NCBI RefSeq assembly: GCF_021545845.1
Contig: NZ_CP088923.1
Coordinates: 2,542,001 to 2,606,000 of the forward strand
Direction of reading: 5' to 3'
From: Rhodanobacter thiooxydans
GTDB taxonomy: Bacteria > Pseudomonadota > Gammaproteobacteria > Xanthomonadales > Rhodanobacteraceae
Length of the DNA stretch: 64,000 nt
Shown here: positions 56,627 to 61,876 of the stretch, one piece after another
How positions within the stretch are numbered: position 1 is the stretch's first letter
Layout: every line of letters begins with the position of its first letter
Program-made: the position numbers and the translations under genes
The notes under the pieces: generated by a model
Seen by the model: the letters and a program-made list of their open reading frames with translations, nothing else
What the model was told of the DNA's origin: nothing
The model's database searches: none

Positions 56627-57594
56627 GGCTGACTCCTCGAGTGGATTACCCCCGGTGGCGGGTACCGTCATCACCCGTGGCCGGTTCGCGGCCGGTCACG
56701 GGTTCTGATTCGTCAATGGCAAGGCCGGCCGGCCCGCCAGATGGCCGGCGGATGCGCGGCGTTGACCTTGCGTCGGCGTGGCAGCGGATCGCCGCCCCTG
56801 CGGCGACGTAACCTTCAGCCATCCCCGCCCGGATGAAACCGGGGCGAACCGGGCTGATCGGCATGCAGCCAACCATGCAACCCGACGCCCTGCTCATGCG
56901 CATCGGCCGCGCCGCCTTTCGGGAAGCGCGCCAACGTGCCAAGCCGGCCGTGCCAGCGAGGCCGCAGGGGGATGACAGGGGGACGCCGCCGAGGTCATCG
57001 GCGGCACGCCGTCGTGCCATCGCCTGCCCGGCGCAGAAGGAGCACATGTTCTTCACCTTGACACCCCCAACGCGCCCTTCCCCACCCGCCGAGCCGCGCA
57101 GGCACCCCGATGCCCCATGCGCCGCCGGCTGCCCCGGCTTTCCAGCCTGCCCATGTCCGTGCCTTCCATACCGACCGCTGCAGTATGTGCACGCCCGCCG
57201 AGGCGATGTTGACCGCGATCAAGTGGAAACCACGTCGCACCGGGTTGGGTTCGGTCAAGTGGGCGCATCCTGGCAGGCTCACCGGGATTCGACGACCGTG
57301 CCCCGCCCAGCCGCCAGGCACGTGGCATCGCTACCGTCGGGCGGACACCGGATCGCCGTTCGTCGCCATCCTCATCGCGCGGCTTGGCGGTGTCTGTCCG
57401 CCGGGGGGCAACACGACGGAATGATCGGGCCGGCAGGGAATGGCGTGGGCAAACAGCCCGAAACGCAGGACGGGCTGGAAAGCGGATCCGAGTCCATCAT
57501 GGTTCCCGACGTCCGCCGCCTTGCGTCCCGGATGCCCGCGGGCCGACCACTCAGTCCACCGGCGCACTCAATCACCTGTCAGGTCATGCCCGCA
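56627..57594. other. Long gap, probably decayed sequence
   Basis: 968 bp with open frames in several registers but no recognisable protein. The only homology I see is internal: 57350-57470 matches 58710-58846. A frame ending SPFVAILIARLGGVCPPGG (stop at 57424) looks like the hydrophobic tail of a membrane protein whose body is gone. Confidence 0.5.
57350..57470. repeat. Diverged direct repeat, copy 1
   Basis: It aligns with 58710-58846 in the same orientation. The best-conserved part is CGTCGCCATCCTCATCGCGC, followed by GGGGGCAACA and a shared GGAATGAT. Both copies encode a similar tail (VAILIARLGGV here) and a nearby stop. The copies flank the broken XRE regulator gene. Confidence 0.7.
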
Positions 57595-58419
57595 TCAGGC
57601 CGATGCCGCCAGCCCGGCACAGACCGCTGCGGTGTGATCGTCGGCGGGAAACGCGCATTCGATGCGCAGTTCGTCCAGCGTCACGTCGCGCGGCATCGAG
57701 AACGTCGTGATGGTCTCGAAGAAACGCAGCTCGCCCAGCCGGCTGCGGAATACCAGCGTGAGCACCGGCGCCGGCATGCCCTGCAGATCGCGGAAGCGCC
57801 AGTGCGCGGGTACGTCGCGATAGGCCAGCACGTCGGCCAGCAGATCCTGCAGCGTGCGATCGCTTGGCACGGCAGCGAGCTGCTCATGGACGTGGCGAAT
57901 GAACTTTTCCGCCACCTCCGGCCAGTTGACGATCACCGAACGGAAGTCGTCCGGATCGAACACCTGGTGTAGCAGGTTGGCATGCCGGCTCTCGCGACCG
58001 TCCATCAGCAGGCGATTGACCCGCGTCGCCGCCCCGTTGGCCATCAGCACGTTCCATTGCCGGTCGATGACGAAGGCGGGGTAAGGCTCCTGGTGCGCGA
58101 TGATCAACTCGATCGCCTGCCGCATCCGCTCCAGCGCCGGCGCCGCCAGTGCGTTCTCCTGATACTGCGGCGCGTAGCCAGCGGCCAGCAGCAGCGTGTT
58201 GCGCTCGCGCAGCGGCATGGCGAACACATCCGCCAGCCGGCCGATCAAGTCGCGGCTGGCGCGCGCCTTCCCCGTTTAGACATAGCTCAGGTGCCGGGCA
58301 GAGATGCCCGCTTCCAGCGCCAGCTCGAGCTGGCTCATGCGCCGAGTGGTGCGCCACTCGCGCAGCAACGCGCCAATCGGCGGATGCGGCTGCGCAGAGC
58401 CCGCGTACGTCGACACCAT
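57595..58419 (-). pseudogene. XRE/MmyB-type regulator interrupted by one TAA codon
   Basis: Read from the ATG at 58419 this is a 274-residue regulator: helix-turn-helix (LLREWRTTRRMSQLELALEA, GISARHLSYV) then a MmyB-like ligand-binding domain (LLAAGYAPQYQE, YPAFVIDRQWNVLMANGAA, FRSRLGELRFFETI). A TAA at 58276-58278 falls exactly where relatives have Glu (SYV-E-TGKARASRDL), consistent with one GAA-to-TAA change. No frameshift is seen. The second part could be restarted at 58248 but would lack DNA binding. Confidence 0.85.
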
Positions 58420-58604: not shown

Positions 58605-58709
58605 TCGGTCGACACTGGAGGAGTCGCGTGTGGCACTTCGAAGCCAAAACTGCCCCTGACGCCCGGGTTTGACAGACACCTTTTCTGGCAGGTGGGCGGC
58701 ATCTGTACG

Positions 58710-58846
58710 GTAGAGCAGATCGCCGAATCGCTATTCGTCGTCGCCATCCTCATCGCGCGACTCGCCGGCGTCTATCCACCGGGGGCAACAAAAGCAGAAT
58801 GATTAGGCTGGCGGAAACGGCGCAGGGAAACAATTCAAAGCGAGGC
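58710..58846. repeat. Diverged direct repeat, copy 2
   Basis: The counterpart of 57350-57470. The frame reads SLFVVAILIARLAGVYPPG and stops at 58799-58801. The hydrophobic run would suit the last membrane helix of a small channel or carrier, but the N-terminal part is not present. Confidence 0.7.
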
Positions 58847-58896
58847 GGGTTCGGGAAAGTGAACCTGACCCCGTTTGTGGAAAGGGAGCTTTGAGA

Positions 58897-59289
58897 TTAA
58901 GCCTTACCCTTGATAGCCTCAGATCGAATTCGCGCACCAACCGTCGCCTCAATGATCTTGTCTCGGAGAGTTTCAACTTTATCCTGTTTAAGGATGGGTA
59001 TATCCAAAGATCTAGCCAGTTGTTCGACGGGCTTCTTGGTCTCAAAGGTTCGCAATAGAAAATCTGAGGCTTCATCGCGACTACTAAATGAAGTTAGTTT
59101 TTCAACAAGTGCTTTAAAATCTTCAAACGGAACTTGCTCCACCTCATCCTTAGTGCGTTTGCGCACAACCCTGAGATCTATGTCATAGCCCTTGTCAGAT
59201 AACTTATCGATATCTTCGCTCGATAGGTTCATCACTCCTGAAAGAACTTTATTAAGGATAAGGGCCAATGCTTTCTGCGACTTGTCCAT
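58897..59289 (-). CDS. 130-residue ParA-partner protein with SAP/Rho-N-like tail
   Basis: No named family is recognised. The N-terminal two-thirds are helical and charged (KALALILNKVLSGVMNLSSE, FEDFKALVEKLTSFSSRDEA). The C-terminus KKPVEQLARSLDIPILKQDK then VETLRDKIIEATVGARIRSE follows the L-x2-LA-x-L-x-I-...-K-x2-L-x2-I pattern of SAP/Rho-N-type helix-extended-loop-helix modules, which often bind nucleic acid. It starts 9 bp after the ParA-like gene and is surely its operon partner. By analogy it could be a ParB-like adaptor or cargo; this is inference. Confidence 0.75.
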   Translation of the reverse strand: MDKSQKALALILNKVLSGVMNLSSEDIDKLSDKGYDIDLRVVRKRTKDEVEQVPFEDFKALVEKLTSFSSRDEASDFLLRTFETKKPVEQLARSLDIPILKQDKVETLRDKIIEATVGARIRSEAIKGKA

Positions 59290-59298
59290 TCTTATACC

Positions 59299-60225
59299 TC
59301 AGAGTAGCGACTGGAATTCACGAACCACACCCTCAATCTCCTTCACTACATCTGAATGCGTGTTGTTTGAATAAGCATTCAGGACAACTGGAATGAGCTC
59401 CTGAGGCGCGCTGGCAAATATGGTCTTATTCTCCCTGAAGTACGTATTCATAACATGAACACCAAGCCGCTTAGTTTGCGCAATAAATTGCCGCTGCGCC
59501 GAAATGGGCTGGCCACTCGTGATCTGAATCATTGTAAACAGGACACCAAGGATAGAAGGATCAATTTCATCCTCATCCTCGTCAAGCGCCGCGTATTCGT
59601 TAAATTCCTTCACGAGATCATTAACACTTCGCTGCAAATAATCGATGCCCAGCGTAGACAGGTAGTCAGGCTTTGCGGGAATCAGAATTTTTTCGCTGGC
59701 AATAATTGCATTTTTAGTAACGATATTGAAGTTGGGAGGACAATCAATAAGAACAATGTCATAGTCCGCCTCATCGATCAGATCCCTAATCGCCCTTCTG
59801 AGCTTTCCGTGCACTTTGATGTAATTGCGCTTTGATTGTTGCAGATTGGCCCCACCAAGCAGGGTCGCCAACTCAAGGTCAACATTGATTAGACCAAGAT
59901 GAGAGCAAATCAAATCTATCCGACCACCCGTATCCTTTCTTGAGAGATATCCATTTACCTTGGCAGGCGAGATAATGAACTCCTTCAAATCCCTCGGATT
60001 GTGACCGCCACTTATGGCATCAAACCAAGTCTTGATTGTCTTGTGGGATTTGTAATCCTCGTCCCATTCGTCAGGAGTGATAAAAGAGAAAGTCAAGCTT
60101 GCCTGAGCATCAGTATCGATCAACAGGACTTTTTTGCCACGAAAGGCAAGCTCTCCTGCGATATTTGAGGTTACGGTGGTTTTGCCAACCCCACCCTTAT
60201 AGTTAATGACAGCAACAATATCCAT
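59299..60225 (-). CDS. ParA/Soj-family P-loop ATPase
   Basis: A 308-residue deviant-Walker ATPase. The N-terminus MDIVAVINYKGGVGKTT holds both lysines (K10 and K15) of the ParA/MinD class. The A' motif is LLIDTDAQASL (D37, D39) and Walker B is DYDIVLIDCPPNFNI. The family dimerises with ATP and positions DNA, protein arrays or membranes. It lacks an N-terminal DNA-binding extension, so it is a small ParA. AAGGTGGGG precedes the ATG at 60225. It is coupled with the 130-residue gene and lies 58 bp after the integrase gene. Confidence 0.92.
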   Translation of the reverse strand: MDIVAVINYKGGVGKTTVTSNIAGELAFRGKKVLLIDTDAQASLTFSFITPDEWDEDYKSHKTIKTWFDAISGGHNPRDLKEFIISPAKVNGYLSRKDTGGRIDLICSHLGLINVDLELATLLGGANLQQSKRNYIKVHGKLRRAIRDLIDEADYDIVLIDCPPNFNIVTKNAIIASEKILIPAKPDYLSTLGIDYLQRSVNDLVKEFNEYAALDEDEDEIDPSILGVLFTMIQITSGQPISAQRQFIAQTKRLGVHVMNTYFRENKTIFASAPQELIPVVLNAYSNNTHSDVVKEIEGVVREFQSLL

Positions 60226-60283
60226 TTGCCCCACCTTAATTGTCAAAATTGAACACGAGCCACGAGTTCAGCAGCTCCACCTA

Positions 60284-61699
60284 TTACCTCACGCCCCAAT
60301 CCAATTTCTCAACCGCATCCAGCAGTTCCCGCATAGTCGGAGCCCTGCTGTAAGCACCATGGTGCTCATCATCCAGCTCATGCCCTACATACGCAGCACG
60401 AAGCTCAGCGGTCACCCCAGCACTCTGTAACCCCTGCACCACGGTCTTGCGCAACGAGTGGAAGCCAAGCTTGCCCTTCTCCGGCTTACCAACTGTCGCC
60501 AGCACATGACGACTGAAAGCTTTGCTGAGCCAGTTCCCAGGCCCGTTGACTCCATCGACCTTCACCTTCGGGAACAGTCGCTTCTCCTCTGCCTTGCGCA
60601 GATCAGACACGCGCTTCAATAGACCCAGCTCAATCAGCTTCGGGTGAACCGGAATCGTTCGGATGCTGACTTCGGACTTCACCGACTGGCATTCCCCTTC
60701 GTTGGTGATGCGAATGCATGGAATCCCATCGACCTCTACGAAGTCAGCCAAGGTCAGTTGCCCAACTTCGGCCACACGGGCACCCGTATACAGACCTACC
60801 CAAGCACCCCACCGTGCCGCCTCACTGAGACCCTCTAGGGCGGTCGGTGAATACAAGGCCTGGATCTGTTCGTTGGTGAAAGGCTTGAACCCAAGGGCAC
60901 GACGCTTGCGCTTCTCACGTGGGCCATAGACGACTTGGCCTGCCGCAGGGTTCTCATCCTTGGCAAAGGGCGGGTAATACCCACGGGCCTTGGCCCAGTC
61001 GAAGAAACCGCGCAAGTAGCTGCACTTGTTCACGATGGTTGGGGTTTCGAGCTTGCCGGCCCGAAGTGCCATGACCCAAGCACCAACATCAATGCGACCC
61101 GCATCCTTCAAGGGATTCTTCTCACCATAGTGCTTGGCGAATCCCTCGACCGCTGTTGTTTTTATTTTGAAAGTCTTGGCCTTGGTCGAAGGTTTGATCT
61201 CCGCCAGCCACAGGGCCACAGCCTTGCCAATGGCAACGCTTGGAATCTTCGATGCAGGGTCGGGGGTAGGAGCAGAAGATGCAGCAACACGAGCTGCCTG
61301 CATGAATTCTTGGTGGTACGGCTCTTGATCCAGCCGTCCGATATGGTCGACCGCATCCATGGCAAAACCATGGTCTGTTTTGCCGTTGGCCTCAATTTCG
61401 ACCCTGCCATCCAGGTGACGGATGACCTTGTACCCCAAGGCAATCGCCCTGGCGATTTCCTCAACAGAAGGTACGCCATCCATAGCTACGGACACACTCA
61501 GTCCCCCAACCTGTGTGAAGGTCCGAGCATACGCCTGGACAAGGTTCAACGCACGTTGCTGCGCGGTCAGGAGGTCACGTGTTCCAAGACTCTTGGTGAT
61601 TTCAGTCTTATCCGTCTTGCGGGTCTGACGTGATGGAATTCTTTGGCGAAAATGCCAGATGCCTGAGGGTGCAAGGCGCAAGTAGTTCGGGATGCGCAT
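60284..61699 (-). CDS. Tyrosine-family site-specific integrase
   Basis: A 471-residue recombinase with an N-terminal DUF6538-like segment (MRIPNYLRLAPSGIWHFRQR), a SAM-like core-binding domain, and a catalytic domain. The catalytic set is complete: R308 (YTGARVAEV), K341, H414-x2-R417 (FHSLRKT), H440 (VGHELDD) and nucleophile Y450 (GAYSR). The ATG at 61699 is used; a longer frame would run through the tRNA gene. It adjoins tRNA-Ser, so that gene is its probable attachment site. Confidence 0.94.
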   Translation of the reverse strand: MRIPNYLRLAPSGIWHFRQRIPSRQTRKTDKTEITKSLGTRDLLTAQQRALNLVQAYARTFTQVGGLSVSVAMDGVPSVEEIARAIALGYKVIRHLDGRVEIEANGKTDHGFAMDAVDHIGRLDQEPYHQEFMQAARVAASSAPTPDPASKIPSVAIGKAVALWLAEIKPSTKAKTFKIKTTAVEGFAKHYGEKNPLKDAGRIDVGAWVMALRAGKLETPTIVNKCSYLRGFFDWAKARGYYPPFAKDENPAAGQVVYGPREKRKRRALGFKPFTNEQIQALYSPTALEGLSEAARWGAWVGLYTGARVAEVGQLTLADFVEVDGIPCIRITNEGECQSVKSEVSIRTIPVHPKLIELGLLKRVSDLRKAEEKRLFPKVKVDGVNGPGNWLSKAFSRHVLATVGKPEKGKLGFHSLRKTVVQGLQSAGVTAELRAAYVGHELDDEHHGAYSRAPTMRELLDAVEKLDWGVR

Positions 61700-61751
61700 A
61701 TCGGCTCGCTGTGGAGCGATATGTGGAGCGACAAGCCCATCCTCAGAAAAG

Positions 61752-61779
61752 CAAAAACCCCTGTAAGAACAGGGGCTTT
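61752..61779 (-). terminator. Terminator after tRNA-Ser
   Basis: On the minus strand CCCCTG-TTCTTA-CAGGGG is followed by TTTTTG. It lies 8 bp beyond the tRNA 3' end and separates the tRNA from the integrase gene. Confidence 0.85.
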
Positions 61780-61786
61780 GCAGTAC

Positions 61787-61876
61787 TGGCGGAGAGAGTG
61801 GGATTCGAACCCACGGAAGGTTTGACCCTTCGCCGGTTTTCAAGACCGGTGCCTTAAACCGCTCGGCCATCTCTCC
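61787..61876 (-). tRNA. tRNA-Ser(UGA)
   Basis: A 90-nt class II tRNA with encoded CCA. Acceptor GGAGAGA pairs with TCTCTCC, the anticodon loop CTTGAAA between CCGGT and ACCGG gives UGA, a long variable arm is present, and the T-arm is GGTTCGAATCC. All stems are intact, so integration at its 3' side restored the gene. Confidence 0.97.

What the first reader, a model, noticed from the sequence alone, without database searches (positions are those of the whole stretch)
58870..61876. Compact tRNA-Ser island carrying only integrase, a ParA-like ATPase and an unknown partner
Seen: an AT-richer ~2.9-kb block at the 3' side of tRNA-Ser(UGA) with three minus-strand genes. The integrase has an intact R-K-H-R-H-Y set. 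The ParA-like ATPase has both signature lysines. The 130-residue partner starts 9 bp after the ATPase gene. Nothing else is on board. Known: ParA ATPases position DNA or protein assemblies, and small integrative elements often carry defence or maintenance genes. Inference: the pair is the cargo and may be a stability module for an excised circle or an anti-phage or competition system. The minimal make-up argues that the two genes act as a unit.
Basis: partly seen in the sequence, partly recalled or inferred. Interest (0 to 1): 0.7.

Follow-up and report, generated by a model that had tools for sequence, protein, structure and literature searches.

The report
Paired ParA-like ATPase and helical partner
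A small DNA insertion beside a tRNA gene carries a two-gene unit, a ParA-type ATPase and an uncharacterised small helical protein, that recurs as a fixed pair in distant bacteria and sits in known anti-phage hotspots in some of them, so it may be an unrecognised bacterial immune system.

Summary
At 58880-61786, beside tRNA-Ser(UGA), a low-GC block holds only an integrase, a ParA-type ATPase (308 aa) and a 130-aa partner. The partner had no significant hit in Pfam, NCBIfam, PADLOC, PHROGs or PDB sequences.

The two genes are a true unit. I found 14 distinct pairs (Gammaproteobacteria, other Pseudomonadota, two distant prophage-like contigs); in each the partner follows the ATPase directly. In a 398-genome sample the same 4 genomes held both. 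Between two unrelated E. coli carriers DNA similarity stops at the edges of the two genes, and no shared flanking site was found. The pair is almost absent from the plasmid and phage collections searched, and often stands without a recombinase. This speaks against a partition locus or a stabiliser of an excised circle.

Where it is mobile, the sites point to immunity: the gpA-gpQ hotspot of P2-like prophages (6 of 8 E. coli carriers, 4 beside PADLOC Hp1-Hp2-Hp3), a remnant beside qatABCD in Vibrio, and a tRNA-Ser site that holds restriction or Hhe genes in 3 of 6 relatives.

Best reading: an undescribed ParA-based anti-phage or anti-invader module (0.5). No activity has been shown, and stand-alone copies have no convincing defence neighbour.

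The parts
61787..61876 (-). tRNA-Ser(UGA), integration site, intact
   Evidence: ARAGORN; integrase relatives in G053, G015, G024 and G080 also lie beside tRNA-Ser genes
60284..61699 (-). tyrosine integrase, 471 aa: DUF6538, SAM-like and catalytic domains
   Evidence: Pfam PF20172 1.5e-11, PF00589 5.1e-06 (PF00589 just under its cut-off); PHROG 1 integrase 5.7e-28; catalytic R-K-HxxR-H-Y read by eye
60226..60283 (-). 58-bp gap between integrase stop and ATPase start; little room for a centromere array; one promoter-like match (60246-60217), not above chance
59299..60225 (-). ParA-type ATPase, 308 aa, with family hallmark CSHLGLINVDLELATLLGG
   Evidence: PF13614 AAA_31 1.5e-38; PHROG 164 ParA-like 2.3e-47; 4393 homologues at E<=1e-3, best 120 listed
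58897..59289 (-). partner, 130 aa: variable acidic N part, conserved basic C third (LDIPI-K-DK-LR-KIIE-TVGARIRS-AI)
   Evidence: no significant family hit; 88 homologues with one query, 377 with a profile; pI and entropy; all-helical model, mean pLDDT 85.4
58880..61786 (.). whole low-GC insertion; left edge 17 bp beyond the partner stop
   Evidence: GC 0.507 against 0.672; homology to relative G006 ends at 58879

Best explanation
The pair is a stand-alone two-protein immunity module, against phage or other invading DNA, carried as cargo by this tRNA-Ser insertion. Shown: fixed operon, co-inheritance, intact ParA ATP-binding motifs, a dedicated helical (predicted) partner whose basic C-terminal third is conserved, and recurrence in prophage and island defence hotspots. 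Inferred mechanism: ATP-bound ATPase dimers coat DNA without sequence preference, as ParA proteins do. The partner's variable acidic N-terminal part contacts the ATPase and whatever is sensed. Its conserved basic C-terminal element binds nucleic acid or a shared host factor. When the partner meets invader DNA or a phage protein it switches ATP hydrolysis, and the ATPase gathers on and silences, mis-segregates or blocks replication or packaging of that DNA. No nuclease or toxin domain was recognised in either protein, so the effect is more likely occlusion or mis-positioning than cutting.
For: Unit: the partner lies directly downstream of the ATPase in 5 of 5 loci found by partner, 3 of 3 other genomes with a hit in a 398-genome phylum sample, 4 of 4 viral contigs with the ATPase hallmark and 8 of 8 E. 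coli carriers among 5426 genomes. The reverse search with the ATPase returned the same 4 of 398 genomes, own included. Six of 13 measured pairs overlap by 4 bp with the starts I chose; ATPase and partner distances correlate, r = 0.91 over 20 pairs, maximum 0.555 in 2000 permutations. Defence sites: 6 of 8 E. coli copies lie between gpA and the portal gene of P2-like prophages, a reported anti-phage hotspot (PMC9122126 section 10; PMC9519451 passages). In 4 of these 6 the three preceding genes are those that in the one copy scanned match PADLOC Hp1-Hp2-Hp3 at 1.5e-245 to 5.3e-144. The only plasmid match is an ATPase remnant whose annotated start is 61 bp after qatD (QatA 6.6e-211, QatB 1.4e-61). 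At tRNA-Ser(UGA) in 6 relatives, 3 carry type I restriction or Hhe genes. Mobility: in two E. coli strains with the same island, tRNA-Asn, integrase, ATPase and partner occur in the window's order with an unrelated integrase.
Against: No activity has been measured. Seven of the 14 pairs (L006-L009, L081-L083) show no convincing defence system nearby. I scanned 8 neighbours from 5 of these loci against PADLOC: five had no match; two in L008 matched a candidate model (PDC-S12, 3.1e-27) and a protease domain (2.5e-19); one in L081 matched GajB and DRT helicase models strongly (1.1e-109), which I read as a housekeeping UvrD-type helicase (inference). L007 has PIN and BrnT toxin genes near; neighbours of L082 were not scanned. 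PADLOC and NCBIfam hold no model that fits the partner, and give the ATPase only generic or weak matches. Rousset et al. cloned eight further P2-hotspot systems and saw defence for three, so location alone does not prove defence; they also mention a putative partition system at the site. The 6 E. coli P2 copies are near-identical and not independent.
Confidence: 0.5

Rival explanations
1. A type I DNA partition or stability module: ATPase as ParA, partner as centromere-binding protein, keeping an excised island or a plasmid-like prophage in the cell.
For: ParA-type ATPase with small downstream partner; present in mobile elements. Rousset et al. mention a putative plasmid partitioning system in about a fourth of P2-like phages. 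Perfect palindromes follow the partner in two prophage copies.
Against: Partner 0 of 72,556 plasmid records. Only 17, 9, 58 and 87 bp of non-coding DNA in the insertion. E. coli carriers share no DNA beyond 15 bp before and 6 bp after the two ORFs. No 9-mer shared more often than in shuffles in 200-bp flanks of 14 loci. Seven pairs have no recombinase in the fetched flanks. At 6 of 5426 E. coli genomes ours is far too rare to be the system that Rousset et al. mention. A site inside the ORFs is not excluded.
Confidence: 0.15
2. A cargo-positioning pair of the McdAB kind: the ATPase on the nucleoid and the partner as adaptor on a cellular protein cargo, spread by gene transfer and not an immune system.
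For: McdA-McdB and other ParA/MinD pairs work this way (abstract openings in the listing). Copies without a mobile context exist.
Against: No third gene is constant in the ORF lists read, so no cargo is encoded nearby. Patchy distribution: partner 0 of 99 other relatives; ATPase 0 of 368 other genomes of the class at E<=1e-40. Recruitment into phage hotspots.
Confidence: 0.17
3. A toxin-antitoxin-like or post-segregational killing unit that keeps its carrier island or prophage in the population.
For: Two small, coupled genes on mobile elements; PIN and BrnT toxin genes flank one copy.
Against: No toxin domain recognised in either protein by Pfam, NCBIfam, PADLOC or PHROGs. The more conserved component is the ATPase, not a small toxin.
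Confidence: 0.1
4. A mobile-element helper acting on the element's own life cycle (integration, excision, superinfection exclusion or lysogeny control).
For: Directly behind the integrase in the window and in E. coli XH988 and EC77; a serine recombinase precedes the L056 copy.
Against: The carriers use unrelated recombinases; four relatives of the integrase that I read lack the pair; half of the pairs have no recombinase in the fetched flanks.
Confidence: 0.08

Closest known systems
Type I plasmid/chromosome partition systems (ParA-ParB, ParF-ParG, Soj-Spo0J)
   Same: ParA-type ATPase (PF13614, PHROG 164) with a smaller downstream partner; the nearest solved sequences include Soj/ParA chains
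   Different: No centromere found, not on plasmids in the collection, no replication genes, partner of unknown family
McdA-McdB and other ParA/MinD cargo-positioning pairs
   Same: Nucleoid-type ATPase plus a dedicated small partner (papers seen only as search listing with the start of the abstract)
   Different: No cargo gene at the locus; patchy and in part mobile; a conserved basic C-terminal element
P2-like prophage gpA-gpQ (old-tin) hotspot systems
   Same: Six of 8 E. coli copies occupy this site, 4 of 6 beside PADLOC Hp1-Hp2-Hp3
   Different: This pair is not named in the section of PMC9122126 that I read, and it has no measured activity
QatABCD
   Same: An ATPase remnant lies directly after qatD in a Vibrio plasmid
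   Different: A separate ATPase family; no partner was detected there

Membership tests
ParA/MinD ATPase superfamily | deviant Walker A KGGxGKT with signature lysine, and the AAA_31/ParA family match | tested here: met
   PF13614 1.5e-38; K10 and K15 invariant in 20 of 20
Type I DNA partition system | cis-acting centromere repeats or palindromes beside the operon | tested here: not met
   No shared flanking DNA between E. coli carriers and no 9-mer shared above shuffles over 14 loci; a site inside the ORFs is not excluded
Type I DNA partition system | partner is a sequence-specific DNA-binding protein (ParB HTH or RHH type) | tested here: inconclusive
   No HTH or RHH family hit; helical monomer model with a low-confidence stretch 41-60; no clear PDB fold match
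Type I DNA partition system | serves a self-replicating element with replication genes | tested here: not met
   Partner 0 of 72,556 plasmid records; copies in flanks with housekeeping genes and no recombinase
Anti-phage defence system | recurs in defence hotspots or beside known defence genes | tested here: met
   P2 gpA-gpQ site in 6 of 8 E. coli carriers, 4 of 6 with Hp1-3; Qat neighbour of a remnant; but no convincing defence neighbour at the stand-alone copies scanned
Anti-phage defence system | protects cells against phage when expressed | not testable with these tools
   needs plaque assays
McdAB-like positioning system | encoded with, or shown to bind, a cargo | tested here: inconclusive
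   No constant third gene in the ORF lists of the loci read; a cargo encoded elsewhere is not testable
tRNA-integrated genomic island | integrase next to a tRNA 3' end | tested here: met
tRNA-integrated genomic island | direct repeat of the tRNA 3' end at the far edge | tested here: not met
Toxin-antitoxin module | one gene toxic, the other neutralising | not testable with these tools
   no toxin family hit

The most novel reading that the evidence does not exclude
A widespread but rare, undescribed immune system in which a ParA-type ATPase and a dedicated helical partner recognise and silence, mis-position or block invading DNA without cutting it: the DNA-segregation machinery turned into a weapon.
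Probability: 0.33. Interest if true: 0.82.

Novelty: new variant of a known kind. Interest (0 to 1): 0.62.

Why it matters
ParA-type ATPases are known for moving DNA and organelles. A conserved ATPase-partner unit without a detectable centromere, exchanged among tRNA islands, prophage hotspots and chromosomes, would be a new use of that machine. The E. coli P2-prophage copies make it testable at once with standard laboratory phages.

Tried and rejected
att sites: the tRNA 3' end was searched in the window with up to 3 mismatches and by repeat finding; no second copy.

Empty site: no relative was found with the left flank joined directly to tRNA-Ser. G002 and G025 have part of the left flank 6.3 and 13.2 kb from the tRNA with other inserts between. 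In G006 the two sides are on separate contigs.

Integrase relatives: 8 other genomes of the 100 have one at E<=1e-60; I read the surroundings of four (L040-L043), not of G054, G056, G058 and G027.

Conserved cis site: none found; palindromes after the partner in L049 and L052 look like terminators and are not shared.

SAP/Rho_N lead: E 0.052 in L056, and 0.072 and 0.036 in L057 and L058, which are not counted as family members. Unrelated Pfam families did as well or better in other partners of the same scan (Utp11 0.0096, DUF5675 0.012), so this is only a hint.

Viral relatives: of 16 loci, four (48-65% ATPase identity) have the partner; two at 31-32% (L057, L058) have a longer ORF instead. 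Of the ten weaker ones I read L059-L062, with no recognisable partner by eye; L063-L068 were not examined.

Contig-length matching of ATPase and partner lists gave 45 of 120 against a shifted control of mean 3.2, maximum 7; the partner list was truncated, so this is a lower bound, and matching lengths only suggest the same contig.

Literature: searches listed no paper that by title or abstract opening describes the pair; where many papers matched (400, 83) only the top rows were seen. Six E. coli protein accessions gave 0 papers. Supplementary tables were not searched.
Full report
What is there. The window lies in a 4.2-Mb genome (G000). A 2.9-kb block at 58880-61786 has GC 0.507 against 0.672 for the rest of the window, and the lowest other block of that length has 0.612. 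It abuts the 3' end of an intact tRNA-Ser(UGA), 61787-61876. It holds three minus-strand genes: an integrase (60284-61699), a ParA-type ATPase (59299-60225, starting at ATG 60225) and a 130-aa partner (58897-59289). Non-coding DNA is 17, 9, 58 and 87 bp. The left edge is placed at about 58880 because a same-genus relative matches to 58879 and then differs; that match ends inside a dispersed repeat, so the edge is good to some tens of bases. No copy of the tRNA end marks the far edge.

The proteins. The ATPase hits AAA_31 at 1.5e-38 and the ParA-like PHROG at 2.3e-47. Both signature lysines are invariant in 20 of 20 aligned ATPases. The partner has no significant hit in Pfam, NCBIfam, PADLOC or PHROGs or among PDB sequences (best E 0.087 with a profile), but belongs to a family of at least 377 sequences. 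Its N part (residues 1-84) is acidic (median pI 5.0 over 110 sequences). Its C third is basic (median 9.9) and far more conserved: mean column entropy 0.87 against 1.5-2.1. AlphaFold2 gives six helices, mean pLDDT 85.4 and pTM 0.57, with residues 47-54 below pLDDT 50. No fold match is convincing. Weak SAP or Rho_N matches in distant proteins are no better than matches to unrelated families in the same scan.

The two genes are one unit. Searching by partner, the ATPase was directly upstream in 5 of 5 loci from genome contigs and in 3 of 3 non-self hits of a 398-genome sample of the phylum. Searching a 398-genome phylum sample by ATPase returned the same 4 genomes, own included. In viral contigs all 4 with the ATPase hallmark have the partner. 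In E. coli all 8 carriers among 5426 genomes hold both, at 99-100% coverage of a two-gene query. Counting near-identical copies once, this gives 14 distinct pairs: window, L005-L009, L049, L050, E. coli P2 type, E. coli tRNA-Asn type, L056, L081-L083. In six of the 13 measured the genes overlap by 4 bp, with the starts I chose. ATPase and partner distances correlate at r = 0.91 over 20 pairs, with a maximum of 0.555 in 2000 permutations; shared descent of the carriers adds to this. The one exception seen is a degraded ATPase without a detectable partner on a Vibrio plasmid.

It is not tied to this integrase. Four relatives of the integrase whose surroundings I read sit at tRNA-Ser genes with other cargo. 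In two E. coli strains with the same island the order tRNA-Asn, integrase, ATPase, partner recurs, but that integrase shares no significant similarity with the window's. In seven of the 14 pairs (L006-L009, L081-L083) no recombinase was found in the fetched flanks with six recombinase queries at E<=1e-4; some of these contigs are short or end nearby (L007, L009, L082). The unit is thus a module that unrelated elements pick up.

It does not look like a partition locus. The partner is absent from 72,556 plasmid and 50,697 phage records at E<=0.01. The ATPase has one plasmid match at E<=1e-30, the Vibrio remnant, and one phage match at 28.9% identity. Between the E. coli prophage and tRNA-Asn copies, DNA similarity runs from 15 bp before the ATPase start to 6 bp after the partner stop, and no further. 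Across 200-bp flanks of 14 loci no 9-mer is shared more often than in shuffles. Rousset et al. [quoted passage not shown] With 6 carriers in 5426 E. coli genomes, ours is too rare to be that one.

Where it sits when mobile. In 6 of 8 E. coli carriers the pair lies just before the portal gene of a P2-like prophage, downstream of the replication endonuclease. This is the site of old and tin and of other tested defence systems (also passages of PMC9519451). In 4 of the 6 the three preceding genes are of one kind. I scanned one copy (L055): its proteins match PADLOC Hp1, Hp2 and Hp3 at 3.6e-234, 1.5e-245 and 5.3e-144. The other three copies carry the same accessions for two of the three and a different accession for the third. 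That these are the three-gene anti-P1 system of Rousset et al., known as 3HP, is recalled and not checked. In the other two prophages the preceding genes are hypothetical: in L052 one matches a PADLOC candidate (PDC-S42, 8.8e-44) that NCBIfam names a putative phage structural protein; in L069 the one scanned has no PADLOC match. On Vibrio plasmid pMBL287 the annotated ATPase remnant begins 61 bp after qatD; QatA and QatB were matched here, qatC and qatD are so named in the record. In Pelomonas (L005) a type II-like methyltransferase and a large ATPase with weak restriction-enzyme matches lie about 2-6 kb upstream.

The tRNA-Ser(UGA) site in the window's genus. I fetched it in six relatives, the best same-genus hits of a search with the left flank. 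G002 has type I HsdM and HsdR, G006 HsdM and an HsdS piece, G014 a protein matching PDC-S37 (E 0) and Hhe (1.2e-237). G025 has prophage-like genes, judged by eye. In G026 and G035 the one gene tested beside the tRNA had no PADLOC match. So 3 of 6 carry known defence genes there.

Rarity. Partner in 0 of 99 other relatives; ATPase at E<=1e-40 in 0 of 368 other genomes of the class; both in 3 of 397 other genomes of the phylum; 8 of 5426 E. coli genomes. These genome searches score only a few candidates per genome. Patchy presence with 65-77% ATPase identity to the window among eight of the distinct pairs (L005-L009, L049 and both E. coli types) fits horizontal spread.

Reading. A defence role fits the fixed pair, patchy spread, choice of sites and faster-changing partner N part. 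It is not proven: stand-alone copies show no convincing defence neighbour among the eight neighbours scanned, and the hotspot also hosts non-defence genes. The proposed mechanism (ATP-dependent DNA coating, partner as sensor-adaptor, occlusion or mis-positioning of invader DNA) is inferred from what is known of ParA proteins. No nuclease or toxin domain was recognised in either protein.

Verdict. The pair is a real, conserved unit that my literature searches did not find described (top rows only, supplementary files not searched), with immunity as the leading but untested function.

Noticed in passing
window 58698-58832 and 57324-57455: A dispersed repeat of about 130 bp (75% identical) ends near the left edge of the insertion; two matching stretches also lie in relative G006 (L045). 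It may be a small mobile repeat.
   Followed up: partly
window 57595-58419: A minus-strand helix-turn-helix regulator gene (by eye) next to the insertion is interrupted by a stop codon near 58276-58278; relative G006 has a closely related copy.
   Followed up: no
L073 5879-6393 (Vibrio alginolyticus plasmid pMBL287): A broken ATPase of this family, in separate frames and without a detectable partner, lies directly after qatD.
   Followed up: partly
L053 15088-21090: The E. coli XH988 tRNA-Asn island that carries the pair also encodes a MobQ relaxase, pilus genes, TcpC, a TIR-domain protein and a macro-domain protein.
   Followed up: no
L057 8840-9493, L058 7271-7840: Distant ParA genes (31-32% identical) in viral contigs are followed by a 189-217 aa protein with a weak Rho_N-like C-terminus, perhaps an outer branch of the same pair.
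   Followed up: no
L046 5470-11124: A 1884-aa protein matching PADLOC PDC-S37 (E 0) and Hhe (1.2e-237) sits at the tRNA-Ser(UGA) gene in a relative.
   Followed up: no
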